A DNA stretch of 64,000 nucleotides from Tremella fuciformis (taxonomy: Eukaryota > Basidiomycota > Tremellomycetes > Tremellales > Tremellaceae). Every line of letters starts with the position of its first letter. Position 1 is the first letter of the stretch. Shown here piece after piece: positions 7,866-32,969 of the stretch. The notes under the pieces were generated by a model. The model saw nothing but the letters and a program-made list of their open reading frames with translations. It ran no database searches and was not told where the DNA came from. The position numbers and the translations under genes are program-made. Where the stretch lies: assembly GCA_032768795.1 (NCBI GenBank), contig CP136491.1, positions 1,860,001-1,924,000 on the forward strand, in the 5' to 3' direction.

Positions 7866-8039
7866 CCCAGTCTCAGTTGACTCTTCAAAGTCTTTTGTTC
7901 TCTACAACCCCAAACCGAGCCAGCTCGGCGAAGCCCTAAGGGACCAAAACAAGCAGAAAACGACGCAACAAAGCAGCCGATGCATGCAGAACATGCATAG
8001 GCCTGCAAGGGACTGCAGGCCTACCAACCGGGGGGGTAC

Positions 8040-8706
8040 TGTTATGACCCTACAACTCGGCTCATAACACAAACGACACATCAGCCACAGTCAACACTTA
8101 TACCGGCGATCACCGACATAACACTATACTATTTCCACCGACCCAAGCCACAGTCAGCACTTACCCTGGCAATCACCGACAAAACACTATACTATTTCCA
8201 CCGACCCAGCCACAGTCAATACTTTTATCGGTGATCTCAGTACTATTATCGGTGACCTTCCCTGGAGTCAGTACTTTTCCCGGTGACCTGGCTCACCGAC
8301 CTCAAGCCCCCTTACCATTCCGAGTAATTCAGTACAAGCCACTGCAGCGAGGAGAATCGCTTGCAGTCGAGGAATATCGAGTGCTAGGAAAACTTTCATG
8401 CGGAATGGGTGGCAAATAGCCTTCGGCGTAGAGGGGTCTGAGGTCTATATAAGGAGGCCCGTTTCCGGCCTAGAGATCTCCTCTTCAGAGATCGATTCTT
8501 GTAGTTACTTCTCATAGCTTTCTTGCACTCGAGTCTGCTTCCTTGCGCACCCAGCCTCGAGCGCCCATCGACTTCAACATTCGACTTCGAACCTCAACCT
8601 TCTACCATCAATCGTCCGGTACGTCCCAGACTGTATTTCCTCTTACCTCCGTGTGCGTATTACCCGTCCGCCTACCTTGGCTAGCTACCAAGGCCAGGTC
8701 GTAACA
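8040..8706 (+). repeat. 3' LTR of the Ty3 chromovirus
   Basis: 667 bp, matching 1735-2401 throughout except for one base. Preceded by a run of seven G (polypurine tract) and followed by CATCC (8707-8711), the right half of the target duplication. Confidence 0.95.
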
Positions 8707-18373: not shown

Positions 18374-19193
18374 CACGCGCTGTCTACACAGAGTGAGGGT
18401 CAGCTACGTGGAGCGAATTCCTGTCCTGCGAGCGGTGGGTCCTGGAGTCCGAAGCGCTGGCGTTTCGTATAGGACTAGAGATATCAGGTAGGATGGCATC
18501 GGACCTCGTTCAGAGACCGCATGGATTCGTGAAGATGACGGACCTTACGTAAGACATCATCCTGCAGACCACTTTAGCCAGTACATGGGCAGCATTTTGT
18601 CATGCCCCCTGCACATATCAGACTATCAAGCTCCCGCTTTGCAAAACGGTATTGCAATTTGCAATGCCCAGATGTTGTCATGTTGGGACAAATTTTGGAA
18701 ACTTCTCCAAGCCATTACAATACTTATGCCTTGATATACAAGAGTGTGCAATTGTCTCCCAGCCAGCATGTAGCAGAGGTAGTGTCAGTTAGGGGTAGGG
18801 TCTGAAGACTTGAGCCTGGACTTGCAAAGGCCATCAGTAAAGACGCCTCTGCGAGCAATACTAGAACAACAACAAACTTTTTGCAATCTGCTTTGTCCCA
18901 TTCATTTCCCTCTTCTTTTGCATGAGAGTTTGCAATTATATGATGGACTCCCTGAGGTGCTGGTTTTGACTTGTCTTTGCCACTTCACCTTCCTGTCAGG
19001 ATACCCTGCTTCTAGTAACACAACACCTGCCCCTCCCCCCCCCCCCCCCCCCCCCCCGGGCGCCCCCCCCACACACACACATTCTTTGAGGTATCTACCC
19101 AGACTTGCTCTGGCCACATACATCTATCAGATTCTGCTTCAACAGATCTGTTGCAAGGTCCAAGCTTTTGCCACCGGCACTCCCAGCTTAGGA
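18374..19193. other. transition into AT-rich DNA with a long C tract
   Basis: Host-like composition ends near 18.6 kb. A C23 run (19035-19057) is followed by GGGCGC, eight C and a short (AC)n run. The reading frame of the next gene is open back to 18810, but the part before 19194 is low-complexity and poorly protein-like, so I treat it as upstream sequence. Confidence 0.5.
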
Positions 19194-19925
19194 ATGCCTG
19201 CTGACGCTTCACCCAAGGATGCCATGGATAATAAGTCCAGTTTGCCTGTTCCAAAGGACTTTGAAGACAGCCTGATATTAAATGAGCTCAACGAGCTCTT
19301 GGCACCTTGTGGATGTCGTACATGTGCAGAGTGTCTGCCCAAACTATGGAAATGGCGGCAAGATACATTTACGCAAATAGCAGACCAACAGGACAGACTA
19401 GAACAACTGGAAGAGCACAAGAGAGTGGCAAAGAGGACTGGGGATTCTGATTCATTTACAAAGTACCACTCTCAGCAGAAACACAAGGTAGCCACACAAA
19501 TGGACCTACTGGAAAGATCTCAGATGCTCAACACTTTTTGCAGCAAATATCAATGGGAGGGCATTCTTACCATCGAGCTTGCAATTGAGCTTTCTCAGCA
19601 GCTTGAATTGTGCCCAGAGACTGGCATGCCGTCTCAAATTCGTCGGAACAAATTACCTGCAGACTACACAGACTTCTCAGAGCTCCTGTCTGAGGGAGAA
19701 GATGATGGTGGCCATCATCAGAAATCCAAATTTGAGGACCAGTTCATGGCAGCTGAGTCTCCTGACAAAGCGATAACAAGGTCAGAGCTCAAACTAGATG
19801 CAAGCTTAACTCTGCGGTCCAAAAACCCTCAGCAGCAGTATGATCACCAGTCTGGCTCAGATGTCTCAGATGGAGAGACTTCTGAGCACCTGTCCAAGAC
19901 ATCAGAATCAGATGTAGATATCTGA
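19194..19925 (+). CDS. unknown acidic protein with CGCRTCAEC motif
   Basis: About 243 residues from ATG 19194 to TGA 19923-19925. A short cysteine cluster (CGCRTCAEC, about residues 43-51) is followed by a charged, probably coiled-coil segment (about 60-120), and a C-terminal third rich in Ser, Asp, Glu and Gln. Codon use is AT-richer than in the host genes at 33-64 kb and like that of the tyrosine-phosphatase-like genes nearby. No family recognised. It could be a nuclear accessory protein of a mobile or host-adaptive locus, but nothing in the sequence proves that. Confidence 0.5.
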   Translation: MPADASPKDAMDNKSSLPVPKDFEDSLILNELNELLAPCGCRTCAECLPKLWKWRQDTFTQIADQQDRLEQLEEHKRVAKRTGDSDSFTKYHSQQKHKVATQMDLLERSQMLNTFCSKYQWEGILTIELAIELSQQLELCPETGMPSQIRRNKLPADYTDFSELLSEGEDDGGHHQKSKFEDQFMAAESPDKAITRSELKLDASLTLRSKNPQQQYDHQSGSDVSDGETSEHLSKTSESDVDI

Positions 19926-21693: not shown

Positions 21694-22196
21694 TGTCACG
21701 ATGCTGCGCTCTCCCGTTGGCAGAGGCCCTCTCGCACAATATCAGAGTCGCGAATAAAGGATAAAGGGGTAGAAACGAGGATATCGAGGTAGGACCCTCG
21801 TCGAGGTAGGACCCTCGTCGAGGTAGGACCCTCGTCGAGGTTGGACCCTCGTCGAGGTAGGACCCTCGTCGAGGTTGGACCCTCGTCGAGGTTACAAGGT
21901 CGTCGAGGTAACAAGGTCGTCGAGGATACAGCGTGAGTGCGACTTAGCCACACTGCGTGCCACGGAGAGAGTGAGATCGTCAATGATGATCCATGAGACT
22001 CAATCAGAGAGTGCTGAAGAACTACGACGGGCGCCCGGGGCATCCTATATGACTCTGCGCCTGCTTCCCGCCGTCGCGCGTTCATCCAACATCTACTCCT
22101 TCATCGAGGTTCTCCAGCCCGAGGTAGGTCACGTGTTGCTCACGTGAGAGGTGTCGGTCACGTGGGTAGGTCGTCGAGGGCGTGGCCGTCGTGACA
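21694..22196 (+). repeat. solo LTR, family A, copy 3, with minisatellite
   Basis: 503 bp, TGTCACGATGCTGCG...GGCCGTCGTGACA, flanked by AATAC (21689-21693 and 22197-22201). It is 85 bp longer than copy 2, which equals five extra 17-bp units of its internal array. Confidence 0.95.
21790..21891. repeat. 17-bp minisatellite, six units
   Basis: Six adjacent copies of (A/T)(A/T)GGACCCTCGTCGAGG-type units, 21790 to 21891, alternating TAGG and TTGG variants. Each holds the palindrome CTCGTCGAG core shared by several LTR families here. Confidence 0.95.
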
Positions 22197-23784
22197 AATA
22201 CCAAGCCAGAAGTGCAACCCCAGTGAGTGATTTAGATGGAGCCAAACATGGCAGATCTTCTCAAGTGCAAGGTTCTCAAGGAGGCATTGTGCAAGAGAGT
22301 CCTGGTGTGAATTTTCAGCTGTCTGACTCTTTGGGGACAAGCTCTGTGGCCACATTTGGCTTGAACAATCAAAGCATAACATCTGCAGCCTTGCTTGATT
22401 CTAAGACTGATCAGGTAGGGTCACAACAGGCAAAAATAAGAAGGCATACAGCCACTGGACTCTTCAGCAGTCATGATGTCAGTGCAGCTGAGATTGCAGC
22501 ATTTGCCCAAAATATGTGGATTAGAAGGAGGTCCTGCTTGATTGCTAGATGTCCACCTCTCTGGGGGGAAGGTGATATACTCCCAGAAGATGGGCCAGAC
22601 TTGACTGGTGTGCCAGACATACAAGTTGAGCCTACAGATCTCCAGTGTGTTGCTGGTCACACTATCTTCACAGGTTCAACAATCCTGGCAGTGAGTCTTT
22701 TGTTGTGAGGCTCTGTCGGAGGCAGTCAGGGCCATCCAGAGCTGACCCTATCTTAGCATCCAAAAGCCAATCATTTGTGGGAGTTTTGGAATGCAGTCAG
22801 GAATGACAAGTTCTCCAGCAGACAGAAGGAGCTATACATCTCATGCAATGGGGCGGATCAGCTTTCCAAGACACAGACAGAGGAAAACACTCAGAAGAAT
22901 CTGATCATCAACATGTGGACGGCTTACGAGGGGGTCTCTAAATTTAAGCAATATCTACCGTCAGAACAACAGGTTATCTTGAACCATATCAGGCTGATTT
23001 TCAGGGCTGCCACAGCAACAGATGGACAGGAAGATGGTATATCTTCACCTGTGCCCCATATGACAGTAAATCCGCCCATGCAACTCCAAAACGCAGGAGC
23101 TGTACCTCTTGTGATTAAACAGGAAAGCAAAAGGTTCTCGTCAACCAGCAAATCTACAATAAGGCATTTGACAGTTTCTGACCTTACAGGTAATAATCCA
23201 ACACATGTATGGCATTTTCAAACAGACCTCTGGCCAGACCACAGTGTACCAGAAGATGCCAACCATGAATTCATAGAAAATATGATCATGGAGTCGCTTG
23301 CCAAACGGAATGAGATAGAAAACAGTGGCACCAGCTGTGCCATGCTGCATCACTGGTGGGTCTTACTCTATGATTCCAGCTGTTGCAAGGGGTTAATGTT
23401 GTTGGAAGGGTGCACACTGCTGACTGAATCAGCTCAGCAGGCATGGGAAGAGCTCCCACAGGTTGCATCTGGACAACCCTCATTGATGCAGCGGAGTTTG
23501 GAAGGAAGCTCCCCTATATGGATCTTCGGGAAGTCCCCAAAGAGCCTTTGGACAGCAAGCTTGCAAACAACTACATCTGCCATACAATTGATAAACTCAA
23601 TATTTTCTCTAATTATGTTGAAAGCAGCAGTCAGTACCAGCTCGCACTCAAATTGTATAGGAAGAAATGGCCAGCCATCAAGGAGAAGCTGGGAGATACA
23701 GTCTTCCAGGCTGTGAGATTCCGCACAGACTCCAGTCAAGCCCCTACAGCTGCACAGGATCCCAAGGATTTGCCTGCTGCTTAG

Positions 23785-25033: not shown

Positions 25034-25167
25034 GAATGACACATTGCCAAGGTAGCCCTATATAATGAGTCGAGTCCGGAGGTGATTGACCCGAGCTTGG
25101 CCACAGATTTCCTTTTGGTTTAGTATGAATCAGAAGGATCCTTGTGTTATGTAATCACCCATGTGAC

Positions 25168-25485
25168 CGACGGAAATAGGTGGTACGCTCACATGAGCTT
25201 GACTCATCTTCGAGTAACCTCGTCGAGGCTACTCGATCCTCGACGAGGTTGTGCCTCGACGAGGTTCACCCTCGACGAGGCAGAGAAGCTGCCACCAACG
25301 ATAACTCCGCTTATAACGCCGACACCCTCGACGACCTTGTAGAATGCCGCCGCCTGTTGCCCTCCTCATCACTCATAGCAAGTGCTGAGCGGGCAACAGG
25401 TAAGTCCGAATGCATCACTCATAGCAAGTGCTGAGCGGGCAACAGGTGACCGGAATCCCATTGCCTCAGAGCTAAGATTCCGTCG
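25168..25485 (+). repeat. 5' LTR of the copia element
   Basis: 318 bp, starting CGACGGAAATAGG and ending AAGATTCCGTCG. Contains several CTCGACGAGG palindromes (25200-25290) and a 46-bp tandem duplication (units starting at 25367 and 25413) around CATAGCAAGTGCTGAGCGGG. Confidence 0.95.
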
Positions 25486-25582
25486 TGGTAACGTCTCGTT
25501 CGACAAGTCGCGGTAGATAGAACGCGTCAACAAACTCGTCGACCTTGCCTACGCACCGCCAGCCTCGAAGTGGTCCTCCGTC

Positions 25583-28500
25583 ATGCCATCTGTGCAGACG
25601 GTGAAAGAGGAGCGTAAGCTCAACGGGCGCGACAACTACGCCCAGTGGGTGCGCGAGATTCGAGTCGTCCTCGGATCCGCCGGTCTCGTACCCCACATCA
25701 CCAAGGACGCGTCAGCGATCCGAGCACTCGTCGAGGCTCGATATCCAGTGTCAAGTCCGGCCACAGCAGCCGAGACATCAAAGAGAGCAGTTGCTCTATA
25801 CGAGCATGAGAAGGAGCAGTCCACCGCCCTCTCCACTCTCTACGGCAGTCTGACAGAGACTGTCCAAAATAAGCTTCCCTCGAGCCTGATCGACTTCGAG
25901 AATCCTCAACCGAAGGGGCTTTACGATCACCTGGTCACCACATATGGGGCCGATAACGGATCTCGCCTAGCCGAATTATGGTCATCGATATTTGGCGAGA
26001 CCATCCCAGAGAATGAGGACCCCGAACCTCATCTCACTGCTATCCGGTCACAGTTGGCCGAAATCACCTCCTCCGCCATCACTTCCAAGCTCACCCTTGA
26101 GCAATTCGCCAACCAGATCGGCGCATACGCCGCCATCCGTCGCCTACCGTCCTCATACGGCCTCCTCGCATCGACCTTCTACTCAGGGACCTCGTCGAAC
26201 AAGATCCATCTCGACGAGGTTATCGATAGGGTTGCCGATGAACACCGCCGACGTCAACAAAAGGGCGAGAGCGTAAACGAGATGGGGATGCTCAGCAAAT
26301 CTCTACCAAAACCGGCAGGCAAGAGATGCATCCACCATCCGGATCAGGGGAGGCACTCCACAGATGAGTGCTGGAAAGTGATTGGAGTGCCGAAGCACAT
26401 CCAGGAGCAGAGGTCGGCAAAGGAAGCAGACAGGAGGAAGAAGCAAGGAGGACAAGCGGGGAAGGGAATGAAGGCGAGAGAGCAGAGCGAGTCAGGAGAC
26501 GACTCATCAAGTGAGGCCAAGAGAGGCTCGTCGAGGGAGATAAAGGAGGAAGGCTATTATGCGACAGAGATCGCACTGCACGCCCACGATAACCTTCCCT
26601 CCACTTCCATCATCATCGACAGCGGTGCTACAAGTCCGTTTATCAAGGACAAACACCTCCTCTCCCACCTCACCAAGCTCGACAAGCCCATCAAAATCCA
26701 GATCGGAGATGGGTCAATTGTCGAGGCTACACACTCCGGCCGCCTGACATTCGAGAACGTATGGTACAAGAACGCCCTCTATGTCCCCTCATTCACGCAC
26801 AACCTCCTCTCCACACAGCGCCTCGGTCCATACACAGGGACCCATTGGCGCTTCTCGAGTGACTCGGCTACATTGGTCGAGAAAGGAAAGGTCATCCTCC
26901 GGGGCAAGAAGCTCGGCAACCTATGGGTTGTAGACGACACACCGGTACGCACCACCTCGCGCATTCACCGAGCACTTCAGGCAAGAGAAAACACTGAAGC
27001 CGAAGACAACCGCCTCCTCACCTGGCACAAGCGCCTAGGTCACTCGAACATGAGGAAGGTCTGGGAGCTCGGGAAAGAGGGGAAGCTAGGCGCAAAGTGG
27101 ACGGGATTGTTTCGGAGAGTCGAATGCATGGATTGCCTGAAAGGAAAGGCAACGCGCTCGGCATCTCTACCTAACCCGCGTCGAGCCGGCAAACCCCTCG
27201 TCGAGGTATCAGTCGATCTATGGGGACCAGCGACCGTCCAGTCGAGAGAAGGCTTCCAATACTTCCTCACCTGCTACGACGACCATAGCAAATTTGTGCA
27301 AGCTATACCAATCAAGAAGAAGTCGGATGCAGCCGAAGCACTACAAGACTACATCAAGTTGGCAGAGAATCAGCTTGATCGAACGGTCAAGACCATCCGC
27401 TCAGACCAAGGAGGCGAGTTCACGAGCAAGGAATTCAGCCACTGGTGTAAAAGCAAGGGAATTGAGCATACCCTCACGCCGACCGACGCACACAATCAAA
27501 ACAGTCGAGTCGAGCGCGTCCATCTCACCATCCTCAATGACATCCGCACATGTCTCGCGGACTCGAACCTGTCAAGTCAATTCTGGGTCGACGCATTACG
27601 ATATGTAGTCTTCACCAGAAACAGGCTACCAGACTCCCAGGGAAAAATCCCTGTCGCTCTCTTTCGACCACATCACGACATTGACATACGATATGAAGGA
27701 ATGCAGCCATTTGGCCAACACTGCATCTATCGAGTTGTGAGCCCCGCATCAAAGCTCGACGAGCGGGGTCAATGCGGTCGACTGCTGGGATACACAGAAG
27801 GGAGCTGGGGCTACAAGGTGTTGACCCAAACCAACAGGGTCATCGCAAGTCGAGACGTTACATTCATCACGGGCAAGAAGACAACGCCACGTTCAGATGA
27901 ACCGCGACGGATTCTGGAGCCGCCTCAACCTGAACCTCGACAAGCATCGACGAGCCTCGACGAGGATGACGATACATCAATCAAGCTGAACGAGATAGTC
28001 GAGGCAGGGGAGGCACCAGAAGAAGAGGAACAAAGGGAAGAGATGGACGACATACCTCCCCAAGCCGTGCCAAGGCAAGGGAGAGGCTGGGCCAACGAAT
28101 ACATTCGAGAGGATGCACCGAGCCCAGAACCGAACCCCGACGACGGACCAGAGGATCCAGATCGTCGGCTAAACCAGCCCATAGAGGCCGATGCAGATGA
28201 ACCAAGACGGTCCGGGAGACTAGCAGGTCAAGAGCCCAGTCATCACCCTCTGCACGACATCGACATGGACTATAACCGAGTAGCCATCGAGCACGCGTTA
28301 TCAGCCCAGTCACTCACCAACCCTCAGTCATACACCGAAGCTCGTCGAGCTGCAGACTGGGAGAAGTGGAACAGGGCCATGGACGAGGAGATGACAAAGA
28401 TGGAGAAATACGGAGTGTGGGAGAAAGTCCCCAGAGAGAACCACCGCACCCTTACAGGCAAATGGGTCTTCACCCGCAAAATCGACGGGGACACGGGCAA

Positions 28501-29884
28501 AGCAAGCCAATACAAGGCTAGATTCGTCGTGAGAGGGTTCCAACAAGTCTCAGGACGGGATTTCGACGAACTCTTTGCATCGGTCACCCACAAGTCTTCA
28601 TTCCGCCTATTCCTCACCATCGTTAACTACCTCGACTGGGAATGCGACCAAATCGACATCATCGGCGCATTCCTCAAGGCCAATATCGACAAGGACATCT
28701 TCATCGAGCCACCAGAAGGTAGCGACATCGCTGCCGATCACGTCCTGCACCTCCGGAAGTCATTATACGGTCTCCGACAATCACCGCACTTGTTCAACAA
28801 GCGCCTCGACGAGTTCCTACGGGAGCTAGGCTTCAAACCGACCCTAGCAGACCCATGCATCTACTCGCTGCGACAAGGACACAAGCGGTGCATGATCTCA
28901 GTCCATGTTGACGACATGCTCATAGCCGGCAACGATCGATCAACAATCGACGAGATCAAGCGGAGGATCGACAAGGAACTTGAGTGCAAGGATCAAGGAC
29001 CGGTCTCATACTTCCTCGGTATCAACATCTACCGAGACAGGCCAAACAAGAAGATGTACCTATCACAAGAGCACTACATCGAGGCAGTTCTTCAACGCTT
29101 CGGTGAAACCGGGAAAGCCTGCAAGACAATCTTGCCAGACGCAAAGCTCGTCGAGGCTACGCCAAAGGAGGTCGAGGAGGCTCGAGACAAACCGTTTCCT
29201 GCACTCGCCGGGTCAATCCTCTATATCGCCACTATCACCCGACCCGACATCGCCTACGCAGCCTCACTGCTGTGTCGCTTCATAAGCAAATGGTCACTCG
29301 CGCATTGGAGGGCCGCAAAGCACCTACTGAGGTATCTTCGAGGAACCTCGGATCTTGCTCTCACCTTCGATGCTCATGGAGGGAGACGAGCACTGTTGGG
29401 ATGGGCGGACGCAGACTGGGGTGGATGTCTCGATACACGCCGATCAACAACTGGCTATATCTTCAACACCTACGGAGGCATCGTATCATGGAAAAGCAGG
29501 CGACAACCGACAGTCGCACTGTCGACGACACAGGCAGAGCTCCTTGCATCGACAGAAGCGGGCAAAGAGGCAATATGGCTCAGGCAACTATTGAACGACC
29601 TCGACCTAGGCATAGATGGAGCAGTGCCCATCTACAACGACAACAATGGGGCCATTCAACTGGCCAAACATCAACACGGGTTCAAGTTGAACAAAGCATT
29701 CGACATGCGAGCCCAGTGGATACGAGAGCATCAAGCTGGTGGTCTGCTTGAGCTCAAATACACACCAACGGACAGCAATCGAGCCGACATCCTGACCAAG
29801 ACCCTTTCGGCCGAGAAGACAAGACAGCTCCGGCAGTTACTGGGATTGGAAAGACAAGGAGAAGGAGGGCAGATGAGTCAATAG
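25583..29884 (+). CDS. Ty1/copia Gag-Pol polyprotein
   Basis: 1433 residues, uninterrupted. Gag core first (about 1-220), then a knuckle-like C/H segment (RCIHHPDQGRHSTDECW, about 250); protease with DSGA (IIIDSGATSPF, about 350); GAG-pre-integrase HHCC zinc domain (WHKRLGHSNMRK...CMDCLKGK, about 480-520); integrase D, D, E (SVDLWGP, SDQGGEF, RVERVHL); reverse transcriptase with VDDM active site (VHVDDMLIAG, about 1115); and RNase H (GWADADWGG, TTQAELLAS). The order integrase before reverse transcriptase defines copia/Pseudoviridae. All catalytic motifs are present, so this copy could be active. The ATG is the first after the primer site and gives full-length Gag. Confidence 0.97.
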   Translation: MPSVQTVKEERKLNGRDNYAQWVREIRVVLGSAGLVPHITKDASAIRALVEARYPVSSPATAAETSKRAVALYEHEKEQSTALSTLYGSLTETVQNKLPSSLIDFENPQPKGLYDHLVTTYGADNGSRLAELWSSIFGETIPENEDPEPHLTAIRSQLAEITSSAITSKLTLEQFANQIGAYAAIRRLPSSYGLLASTFYSGTSSNKIHLDEVIDRVADEHRRRQQKGESVNEMGMLSKSLPKPAGKRCIHHPDQGRHSTDECWKVIGVPKHIQEQRSAKEADRRKKQGGQAGKGMKAREQSESGDDSSSEAKRGSSREIKEEGYYATEIALHAHDNLPSTSIIIDSGATSPFIKDKHLLSHLTKLDKPIKIQIGDGSIVEATHSGRLTFENVWYKNALYVPSFTHNLLSTQRLGPYTGTHWRFSSDSATLVEKGKVILRGKKLGNLWVVDDTPVRTTSRIHRALQARENTEAEDNRLLTWHKRLGHSNMRKVWELGKEGKLGAKWTGLFRRVECMDCLKGKATRSASLPNPRRAGKPLVEVSVDLWGPATVQSREGFQYFLTCYDDHSKFVQAIPIKKKSDAAEALQDYIKLAENQLDRTVKTIRSDQGGEFTSKEFSHWCKSKGIEHTLTPTDAHNQNSRVERVHLTILNDIRTCLADSNLSSQFWVDALRYVVFTRNRLPDSQGKIPVALFRPHHDIDIRYEGMQPFGQHCIYRVVSPASKLDERGQCGRLLGYTEGSWGYKVLTQTNRVIASRDVTFITGKKTTPRSDEPRRILEPPQPEPRQASTSLDEDDDTSIKLNEIVEAGEAPEEEEQREEMDDIPPQAVPRQGRGWANEYIREDAPSPEPNPDDGPEDPDRRLNQPIEADADEPRRSGRLAGQEPSHHPLHDIDMDYNRVAIEHALSAQSLTNPQSYTEARRAADWEKWNRAMDEEMTKMEKYGVWEKVPRENHRTLTGKWVFTRKIDGDTGKASQYKARFVVRGFQQVSGRDFDELFASVTHKSSFRLFLTIVNYLDWECDQIDIIGAFLKANIDKDIFIEPPEGSDIAADHVLHLRKSLYGLRQSPHLFNKRLDEFLRELGFKPTLADPCIYSLRQGHKRCMISVHVDDMLIAGNDRSTIDEIKRRIDKELECKDQGPVSYFLGINIYRDRPNKKMYLSQEHYIEAVLQRFGETGKACKTILPDAKLVEATPKEVEEARDKPFPALAGSILYIATITRPDIAYAASLLCRFISKWSLAHWRAAKHLLRYLRGTSDLALTFDAHGGRRALLGWADADWGGCLDTRRSTTGYIFNTYGGIVSWKSRRQPTVALSTTQAELLASTEAGKEAIWLRQLLNDLDLGIDGAVPIYNDNNGAIQLAKHQHGFKLNKAFDMRAQWIREHQAGGLLELKYTPTDSNRADILTKTLSAEKTRQLRQLLGLERQGEGGQMSQ

Positions 29885-29903
29885 ACATGCTCGCGAGGGG
29901 AGG

Positions 29904-30221
29904 CGACGGAAATAGGTGGTACGCTCACATGAGCTTGACTCATCTTCGAGTAACCTCGTCGAGGCTACTCGATCCTCGACGAGGTTGTGCCTCGACGAGG
30001 TTCACCCTCGACGAGGCAGAGAAGCTGCCACCAACGATAACTCCGCTTATAACGCCGACACCCTCGACGACCTTGTAGAATGCCGCCGCCTGTTGCCCTC
30101 CTCATCACTCATAGCAAGTGCTGAGCGGGCAACAGGTAAGTCCGAATGCATCACTCATAGCAAGTGCTGAGCGGGCAACAGGTGACCGGAATCCCATTGC
30201 CTCAGAGCTAAGATTCCGTCG
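29904..30221 (+). repeat. 3' LTR of the copia element
   Basis: 318 bp, visually identical to 25168-25485, preceded by a purine tract and followed by GTGAC (30222-30226). Confidence 0.95.
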
Positions 30222-30401: not shown

Positions 30402-30542
30402 TGTCATGAATGACGCATCGCCAAAGTAGCCTTATATAATGAGTTGAGTCCGGAGGTGATCAACCCAAGCTTGGCCACAGATTTCCTTTTGGTTTAGTAT
30501 GAATCAGAAGGATCCTTGTGTTATGTAATCACCTACGTGACA
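30402..30542 (+). repeat. 3' LTR of the TRIM
   Basis: 141 bp, TGTCATGAATGAC...CCTACGTGACA, with a TATATAATG box and the self-complementary AGATTTCCTT at 30479-30488. Followed by GTAGG. Confidence 0.9.
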
Positions 30543-30547
30543 GTAGG

Positions 30548-31405: not shown

Positions 31406-32969
31406 ATGTCCTCAAATTTGAAGACTGGATCAAGCTCATCAAGTCTGCCTGATGAATCAAGAGCTACAGTCTCCCATCCAGAGGAGTGCTCACAAGGCCC
31501 CCAATCAACCACGCACAGCCTGCAAGAGCATCCCCAGAACCCCAACTTTCTGGGGGAGTATTCTTCAGCCAGACAGGATCCCAACAAACAGACCAAGGGC
31601 TCTTTGTCTTTGACTTCTGGGGACAGCTCCCAGACAGCAACACAGCAGGCAAGGGACAGGGCAGATACAGCAACAGACCTCTTTCCTAGTCATGACATCA
31701 CTGCAGAGGAAGCAAAGACCTTTCACAGTATCAAATATGACAGACGGTATGCTTGTCATTGCGCTTGGAGCCCAAAATTAGCGGAACTGATGGGTAATCT
31801 GCCCAAAGACCAATGGGCAGATTTGACACATGTGCCAAATACACAAGTGGATCCTGATGATGATTATACTGTATCTGGCTCGGCAATGTTCACAGGGCAA
31901 ACAATCCTTGGGGTGAGTCATCTACCTGATGTTCCTTGGGGAGTGTGTCAAAAGCTAATCAGAATGCAGCATCCAGATCGTAATAAGCTGCATGCCTTCT
32001 GGAAATCAGCCAGAAATGATGACTTCTCCCGCAGGGACAAGGAGCTGTACATCACGGATGAAGATGGTGACCAGCAATCATTTGATCAGACCAAGCAGAA
32101 AAATGTAGTCATCAACATGTGGAACTCAACCTGCAATATCCACAAATCATATCTCCCGTCAGCTCATTTGGTATCTCTGTACAACCAAAGGCTGAATGTC
32201 AGGTCTGCAGGAGAAGAAGACAAGGCCAACAAGAACACTAACTGGACCACTCATGCCATAAGTATGACTGTTTTTCCACCTGAAGATGCAAAAGGGGCTT
32301 TGCCTCTTGTGATCACCCAAACAAGCCAAAATTTCTCAGAAGACAGCAAAGCCACCATCACGCATTTGACTGTGTCTGACACCTCAGGCAGTGATCCAAC
32401 ACACGTATGGCACTTCCAGACTGACCTATGGCCAGACTGTGGTGTGCCTTCAGAGGAAGACAGGCCGTACATTGAGGGCATGATGAGAGAGTCACTTGCC
32501 AAACGGCATGAGATAGAGAACAGTGGCTCCAGCTGCTCCATGCTCCACCATTGGTGTGTATCTCAATCATTAAGAGCTAACCCTTGGAGCCCAGACTGGT
32601 ACTGCATGGTAGACTGCTGACTGTATCAGTGGAGTGGGCTATGGCAGAGCACCTACTGCCAGTATTTGGATGACCTTGATTGACGCCGCAGAATTCGGAA
32701 GAAAGCTCCCATATCTGGACCATCCCAAGGTCCATAAGACAGCATTGGACTCCAGGTTCGCAGACAATTATATATGCAAGACCATTGACGATCTCAACAT
32801 CACCAGACCAGCCATTCAAACATGGTCTCAATGCAAGCTTGTGCTTGATTTGTGTGAGGAGAAGCTGGCGACCATCAAGGCAAAGCTCGGTGACTCCATT
32901 TACAAGCGAGTGAGATCCAGAGCAGGGGCGGCAGCGTCTGCCCCGAGTTCTGACGATGCGTCTCTGTAA
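31406..32969 (+). CDS. divergent protein tyrosine phosphatase, copy 2 (intact)
   Basis: Three exons (31406-31912, 31970-32553, 32630-32969) encode 476 residues. After a Ser/Gln-rich N-terminal region (about 1-95) the protein follows the classical PTP plan: a DYTVSGSAMFTGQTILG block in place of DYINAS...IATQGP, then LHAFWKSARND (as in DFW), NVVINMW, a WPD loop (HFQTDLWPDCGVPSEED) with the general-acid Asp, and the P-loop HHCGVGYGRAP made at the exon 2/3 junction, matching HC-X5-R. It ends with a helical domain (LIDAAEFGRKLPYLD onward). It is thus probably a cysteine-dependent phosphatase, though very diverged from Ptp1/Ptp2-type enzymes, so substrate and even activity are uncertain. Codon use is AT-richer than in host genes. 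Intron 1 is a multiple of three and lacks stops. Confidence 0.75.

What the first reader, a model, noticed from the sequence alone, without database searches (positions are those of the whole stretch)
31406..32969. Divergent protein tyrosine phosphatase gene inside a retroelement block
Correct splicing creates the HC-X5-R P-loop across the exon 2/3 junction and leaves a WPD loop with Asp; without splicing both halves look like unrelated frames. The N-terminal substrate-loop region is very unlike known fungal PTPs. A paralogue lies 9 kb away, and composition differs from the host genes. It may be a new, lineage-specific PTP family.
Basis: partly seen in the sequence, partly recalled or inferred. 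Interest (0 to 1): 0.8.

Follow-up and report, generated by a model that had tools for sequence, protein, structure and literature searches.

The report
Divergent, spliced fungal tyrosine-phosphatase gene
A jelly-fungus genome holds a small group of fast-evolving copies of its own tyrosine-phosphatase gene; one of them is evidently transcribed and spliced, and keeps the core catalytic residues while having lost others that are near-universal in the family, so it is a real but odd member of a well-known enzyme family.

Summary
A gene at 31406-32969 (+) encodes a PTP-domain protein whose HC-X5-R loop exists only after splicing. PF00102 scores 31.3 bits (cut-off 20.9); the predicted structure matches SHP2 and PTP1B. 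The host's canonical PTP (PTPB) has the same three introns, one inside the catalytic Cys codon; so do my models of paralogues PTP1, PTP3 and PTP4. It is thus a derived branch of the fungus's own PTP family (host probably Tremella fuciformis, an inference), not retroelement cargo. Cys, Arg, WPD Asp and Q-loop Gln are kept; pTyr-loop Tyr, E-loop Glu and the Ser/Thr after Arg are lost. PTP1/PTP2 diverged under purifying selection (dN/dS about 0.21 in the catalytic part). Most likely an attenuated or retuned phosphatase; pseudophosphatase is the main rival. Besides P0001, no close relative surfaced among 5.8 billion proteins, at limited sensitivity.

The parts
31406..31912 (+). PTP2 exon 1: Ser-rich N-terminus, degenerate pTyr loop (KDQWAD, 31805-31822) and YINA-like stretch
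   Evidence: column comparison
31913..31969 (+). intron 1, 57 nt, GT-AG, in frame and free of stops, at the TQGP-like motif
   Evidence: absent from P0001; same place in PTPB, where P0002 confirms it, and in models of PTP1, PTP3, PTP4
31970..32157 (+). exon 2: HAFW and VVINMW stretches; E-loop Glu replaced (T223 codon 32129-32131)
   Evidence: of 8 placements of 45 nt that reproduce P0001 the only one with GT-AG ends; same place in PTPB (58 nt) and in models of PTP1 (45), PTP3 (49), PTP4
32203..32553 (+). exon 3: WPD (32429-32437, D310), then His and the first two bases of the Cys codon
32554..32629 (+). intron 3, 76 nt, inside the catalytic Cys349 codon (TG|T)
   Evidence: absent from P0001; same place and phase in PTPB (43 nt) and in models of PTP1 (77), PTP3 (77), PTP4
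32630..32969 (+). exon 4: rest of P-loop GVGYG-R355-A-P, C-terminal helices, Q-loop Q412/Q416 (32814-32831), stop
22202..23784 (+). PTP1 paralogue, 48% identical; exons 22202-22690, 22757-22959, 23005-23355, 23433-23784 (my model, no transcript); P-loop HCSAGMGRAPTG; PF00102 43.7 bits; no start codon seen in its frame, an LTR-like repeat ends about 22196 just upstream
25168..30221 (+). LTR element (copia-type by my reading of its frame) with identical 318-bp LTRs between the two PTP genes; context, not part of the gene

Best explanation
PTP2 is a gene of the fungus itself, evidently transcribed, encoding a class I Cys-based PTP. It arose by duplication from the host's own three-intron PTP family and evolved fast. 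SHOWN: the transcript-like P0001 joins the catalytic Cys codon and yields HC-X5-R; the protein scores as PF00102 and is predicted to have the PTP fold; Cys349, Arg355, Asp310 and Gln412/416 are kept; PTP1 and PTP2 diverged under purifying selection. INFERRED: it works by the usual two-step reaction (Cys attack, Asp as acid then base, Q-loop Gln placing the water) but slowly or on an altered substrate, because the Ser/Thr after Arg, the E-loop Glu that locks the Arg and the pTyr-loop Tyr are replaced by Ala, Thr and Trp. An intracellular place is inferred from the lack of a hydrophobic leader in the sequence (by eye). The natural substrate is unknown; a phosphotyrosine of the fungus's own signalling, for example on a MAP kinase, is the default guess.
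Against: Replaced where nearly all of 43 aligned PTPs agree: Asn-Arg-Tyr to Asp-Gln-Trp (43 of 43), E-loop Glu to Thr (42), Ser-Ala to Gly-Val (42), Ser/Thr after Arg to Ala (43). So activity is far from assured. The Pfam match covers only profile positions 104-199 of 234. Folding P0001 alone gave mean pLDDT 34.6; the good model rests on an alignment made of PTPs and picked for motif placement, hence partly circular, and most of its first 150 residues lie under 50. The splice acceptors of PTP1, PTP3 and PTP4 were chosen by me and have no transcript. That P0001 comes from RNA is inferred from lengths; its source is known only as the tag lgn. dS is near saturation (1.9).
Confidence: 0.55

Rival explanations
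1. PTP2 is a pseudophosphatase: it keeps the fold and may bind phosphorylated partners but no longer catalyses at a useful rate, perhaps shielding substrates of PTPB.
For: Loss of the E-loop Glu, of the Ser/Thr after Arg and of the pTyr-loop Tyr; PTP3 also has WAD for WPD.
Against: Cys, Arg and Asp are kept in PTP1, PTP2 and PTP3 although the residues between Cys and Arg differ (for PTP1 and PTP3 this depends on my splice models). A pure binding domain would be free to lose Cys.
Confidence: 0.3
2. The copies are decaying duplicates with residual transcription and no present function.
For: PTP1 has no start codon visible in its frame and lies beside an LTR-like repeat; a truncated HCSAGQGRTG fragment lies near PTP4; low-GC, repeat-rich surroundings.
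Against: PTP2 is open over four exons and matched by P0001; dN/dS about 0.21 in the catalytic part between PTP1 and PTP2; HC-X5-R and introns are kept in the PTP3 model at 23% identity.
Confidence: 0.12
3. The gene is retroelement cargo or came from outside the fungus, as its composition and position might suggest.
For: GC3 0.515 against 0.610 for PTPB; LTR elements nearby.
Against: Three shared intron positions with the host's canonical PTP. Flanking repeats are dispersed families, whereas protein searches of the genome found only PTP1-4, PTPB and one weak, unexamined match at C1:3938421 with E 0.105. Of the 1001 bases upstream of PTP2 only the first 146 match elsewhere.
Confidence: 0.03

Closest known systems
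Class I classical PTPs, Pfam PF00102 (PTP1B, SHP2 as solved examples)
   Different: 14-19% identity in the structural matches shown; pTyr-loop Tyr, E-loop Glu, P-loop Ser-Ala and the Ser/Thr after Arg replaced; R-A-P-T in place of R-[ST]-G
Tremellomycete PTPs nearest to PTPB (Tremella mesenterica P0003, Naematelia P0005, Cryptococcus P0012/P0013)
   Same: PTPB, the host's member, shares its three introns with PTP2; a W..L..R stretch before the domain is seen in PTPB, PTP3 and PTP4. Introns of the other species were not examined
   Different: The four named keep NRY and CSAGVGRTG; PTP2 is 16-22% identical to the aligned PTPs and has a long Ser-rich N-terminus
Cryptococcus neoformans Ptp1/Ptp2
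   Same: Fungal PTPs; [quoted passage not shown]
   Different: Which of them PTPB corresponds to was not determined; PTP1 and PTP2 of this report are only my labels and not those genes

Membership tests
Class I PTP (PF00102) | profile score above the curated cut-off | tested here: met
   31.3 bits against 20.9, residues 270-372, profile 104-199 of 234; the N-terminal part of the profile is not matched
Class I PTP (PF00102) | HC-X5-R P-loop | tested here: met
   HCGVGYGR after splicing, present in P0001
Class I PTP (PF00102) | WPD-loop Asp | tested here: met
   W308-P309-D310
Class I PTP (PF00102) | Q-loop Gln | tested here: met
   Q412 and Q416, aligned to Gln in 41 and 43 of 43
Class I PTP (PF00102) | Ser/Thr directly after the P-loop Arg | tested here: not met
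   Ala356; T in 39 and S in 4 of 43 aligned PTPs
Class I PTP (PF00102) | pTyr-recognition loop NRY | tested here: not met
   Asp-Gln-Trp; NRY in 43 of 43
Class I PTP (PF00102) | E-loop Glu | tested here: inconclusive
   Thr223 in alignment A5 where 42 of 43 have Glu and one a gap, but the placement depends on the alignment (another subset left this loop unaligned)
Class I PTP (PF00102) | PTP fold | tested here: met
   a predicted model built on an alignment of PTPs
Class I PTP (PF00102) | phosphatase activity | not testable with these tools
   needs purified protein
Host PTP family with PTPB | three shared intron positions, one in the Cys codon | tested here: met
   PTP2 and PTPB with transcript-like proteins; PTP1, PTP3, PTP4 by model only
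Retroelement cargo | gene repeated together with a mobile element | tested here: not met
   repeat counts are lower bounds

The most novel reading that the evidence does not exclude
PTP1 to PTP4 are a lineage-born PTP subfamily with a rebuilt active site (HC-x5-R-[AG]-[PA]-[ST]; no pTyr-loop Tyr in PTP1 to PTP3) acting on something other than ordinary phosphotyrosine, whose activity is switched by splicing of the intron inside the catalytic Cys codon. In PTP2, introns 1 and 2 are in frame and stop-free, so retained forms would still be translated, whereas retention of intron 3 removes the active site.
Probability: 0.1. Interest if true: 0.6.

Novelty: new variant of a known kind. Interest (0 to 1): 0.36.

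Why it matters
PTPs are among the best-studied enzyme families, and the residues lost here are near-invariant in the relatives compared. A set of genes that keeps the nucleophile, Arg and Asp but drops surrounding residues is a natural experiment on which parts of the active site are needed. It also shows how gene finding can miss such genes: the signature exists only after an intron inside the Cys codon is removed. Fungi are thought to lack tyrosine kinases (start of the abstract of PMC3937382, search listing), and C. neoformans has 21 PTPs but only three tyrosine-kinase-like proteins (passage of PMC7445287), so a new PTP branch bears on what fungal PTPs act on.

Tried and rejected
Retroelement cargo or foreign origin: rejected on intron positions and copy number. 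A first PTP3 splice acceptor giving HC-X3-R was replaced by one giving HC-TAGWG-R with a 77-nt intron like those of PTP1 and PTP2; that choice was guided by the family, has no transcript, and is supported only by PF00102 reaching 21.6 bits. The acceptors of PTP1 and PTP4 were likewise chosen to keep the frame. Centromere idea: the low-GC island (about C2:1856000-1893000) is close in size to the 40-kb repeat-rich centromere regions described for T. fuciformis (PMC10696834, passages), but the two LTRs I tested are dispersed over the genome, so it stays open. Folding P0001 alone was uninformative. An alignment with PTP1 exon pieces (A4) misplaced the YLP motif and was not used for folding; I compared four subsets for motif placement and chose the one that lined up most motifs, a choice that favours a PTP-like model. 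That alignment (A5) has 43 of the 119 further listed proteins: 35 named as fungal and 8 without a name, taken by me as fungal-like (one of them, P0002, is the host's PTPB). The tree used 19 of the 119 plus the five gene models; PTP3 and PTP4 have long branches, so the grouping of PTP1-4 may be partly long-branch attraction. A weak own-genome match at C1:3938421 (E 0.105) was not followed up. Literature: seven searches seen as listings and passages of PMC10696834, PMC13066641, PMC8031367 and PMC7445287; none of what I saw describes this gene. The search for Tremella fuciformis with tyrosine phosphatase listed 8 papers, none about a fungal PTP by its title. The names of the PTP motifs and the effect of losing the P-loop hydroxyl are recalled; of the 1995 paper on that hydroxyl only the title was seen, in a reference list.

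Full report
WHAT WAS CHECKED. The window lies at G000:C2:1860001-1924000 of a 28.14-Mb genome in 11 contigs. The gene begins with ATG at 31406 and ends with a stop at 32969. Unspliced, its halves lie in two frames. Removing 32554-32629 joins CAC CAT TG to T GGA GTG GGC TAT GGC AGA, giving HHC-GVGYG-R. Pfam PF00102 then scores 30.8 bits, cut-off 20.9.

TRANSCRIPT EVIDENCE. A search of 5.8 billion proteins found one relative at E up to 1 among 6761 candidates: P0001, 461 residues, source tag lgn (which I take to mean the Logan assemblies of public reads; an interpretation), on a contig of 1531 bases. It is identical to the predicted 476-residue protein except that 15 residues are absent. A four-exon model reproduces it letter for letter, with introns 31913-31969, 32158-32202 and 32554-32629. 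Of the placements that reproduce P0001 (2, 8 and 2 found in the ranges tried), one for each intron has GT-AG ends. The genomic span is 1564 bases, longer than the whole contig, so the contig cannot hold the unspliced gene. The simplest reading is that it comes from RNA; an intron-less copy in another strain is not excluded.

THE FAMILY IN THIS GENOME. PTP1 (22202-23784) is 48% identical to P0001. In my model its introns of 66, 45 and 77 nt sit at the same places, the first containing in-frame stops, and its P-loop reads HCSAGMGRAPTG. PTP3 lies on contig C1 near 2181255-2182734, 23% identical, with P-loop HCTAGWGRGPSA and WAD for WPD. PTP4 (C2 near 1067550-1068840; P-loop HCAAGKGRAATA) and the canonical PTPB (C2 near 1053385-1054505; P-loop HCSAGVGRTG) have introns at the same three places: before or at the TQGP-like motif, after YLP or YFP, and inside the Cys codon. 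PTPB's splicing is confirmed by P0002, whose sequence runs across all three junctions. The splice sites of PTP1, PTP3 and PTP4 are my choice, GT-AG and frame-keeping, without transcripts. PF00102 scores fall from PTPB 134.5 through PTP4 90.1, PTP1 43.7 and PTP2 31.3 to PTP3 21.6 bits. The PF00102 search of the genome listed 7 matches, several of them exons of one gene. The strongest, at C1:629602, has an intron one base earlier in the Cys codon and none at the TQGP motif, by my reading.

SELECTION. PTP1 against PTP2: pS 0.689, pN 0.364 over 449 codons. In the 290 codons of the catalytic part dN/dS is 0.21, with a bootstrap interval of 0.38-0.55 for pN/pS; in the 159 N-terminal codons 0.39, with 0.56-0.83. 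dS is near saturation (about 1.9), so the ratios are rough. The introns keep 37 of 66, 34 of 45 and 51 of 77 positions in simple global alignments.

ORIGIN AND HOST. A profile of the five models gave 2022 proteins at E up to 0.01, of which 120 are listed. After P0001 and P0002 come PTPs of Tremella mesenterica, Saitozyma, Naematelia, Cryptotrichosporon, Naganishia, Kwoniella and Cryptococcus. T. fuciformis strain DBZ04 has 27.94 Mb in 11 chromosomes, the largest 8.62 Mb (PMC10696834, passages); G000 has 28.14 Mb, 11 contigs and C1 of 8.65 Mb. I infer T. fuciformis; no call names it. The profile of PTP1-3 found only P0001 at E up to 10 among 7754 candidates. At this database size a relative as far off as PTP3 could be missed, so lineage restriction is a statement about what was detectable. 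In the tree PTP1-4 group at 99/97 and PTP1+PTP2 at 100/97; PTP3 and PTP4 have branches of 3.9 and 3.3 changes per column, and the root is only the midpoint.

ACTIVE SITE. Against 43 PTPs, 35 of them named as fungal, PTP2 keeps D310 (43 of 43), C349 (42), R355 (42), Q412 (41), Q416 (43), K228 (42) and R408 (43). It has D135-Q136-W137 where 43 have N-R-Y, T223 where 42 have Glu, G350-V351 where 42 have Ser-Ala, A356 where 43 have Thr or Ser, and P357 where 42 have Gly. In one search, PTP1 and PTP4 still have a Glu in the E-loop column, PTP3 has not. Of 152 HC-X5-R matches in the 120 proteins held, 150 read CSAGxGR[ST]G; the other two are P0001 and P0019 (CSAGIGRTM); some of the 120 have no such match, their His being another residue. 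PMC8031367 (passages) describes the Cys nucleophile, the Arg, the Asp as acid then base, the Q-loop Gln placing the water, and the highly conserved salt bridge of the P-loop Arg with the E-loop Glu. On that basis PTP2 should still be able to form the phospho-enzyme but with weaker locking of the Arg; loss of the hydroxyl after Arg should slow its breakdown (recalled). The changed pTyr loop suggests a different or looser substrate choice. These steps are inference.

SURROUNDINGS. The gene stands at the right edge of a low-GC island of about 37 kb. A Ty3-type element (LTRs 1734-2401 and 8039-8706, 99.85% alike) and an LTR element that I read as copia-type (25168-30221, LTRs identical) lie in it. 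All 40 copies of the latter's LTR that were scored, its own two included, are identical (254 candidates). The repeats beside PTP1 are equally dispersed (40 places scored each). Of the 1001 bases upstream of PTP2 only the first 146 match elsewhere. So the retroelements are neighbours, not carriers. PTP1's frame has no ATG before its first similar residues, and an LTR-like repeat ends about 70 bases upstream of them, which may have cost it its start; no transcript of it was found.

VERDICT. A real and divergent PTP gene, evidently transcribed; a derived branch of the host's own family. The surprise lies in the number of near-invariant residues lost while the core trio is kept, and in the Cys-codon intron, which the canonical host gene shares.

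Noticed in passing
window 1-33000 (G000:C2 about 1856000-1893000): A low-GC island of about 37 kb with LTR elements near the middle of a 3.63-Mb contig; its size resembles the 40-kb centromere regions described for T. fuciformis, but the two LTRs tested occur all over the genome.
   Followed up: partly
window 22196-22268: PTP1 shows no start codon in its frame and an LTR-like repeat ends just upstream, so its 5' end may have been disrupted.
   Followed up: partly
L013 about 2500-2900 (G000:C2 about 1066000): A stretch that would read HC-SAGQG-R-TG after a Cys-codon intron, followed by a PTP4-like C-terminus, with no WPD seen: probably a truncated PTP copy next to PTP4.
   Followed up: partly
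window 31913-31969 and 32158-32202: Introns 1 and 2 of PTP2 are multiples of three and stop-free, so unspliced forms would stay in frame.
   Followed up: no
window 25168-30221: LTR element whose LTR is identical in all 40 scored genome copies (its own two included): probably a recent burst of transposition.
   Followed up: partly
window 30402-30545: A repeat of about 143 bases with 25 further matches in the genome, one near PTP4 (C2:1065291) and one beside the LTR element (25034-25167).
   Followed up: no
window 18783-19925: Long open frame of 380 codons; its only Pfam match is below the cut-off.
   Followed up: no
P0002: The transcript-like PTPB is 98% identical to the genome copy, whereas P0001 is identical to PTP2 throughout: perhaps different strains or haplotypes.
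   Followed up: no
G000:C1:3938421-3938600 (-): Weak match to PTP3 (E 0.105), possibly another distant family member or chance.
   Followed up: no
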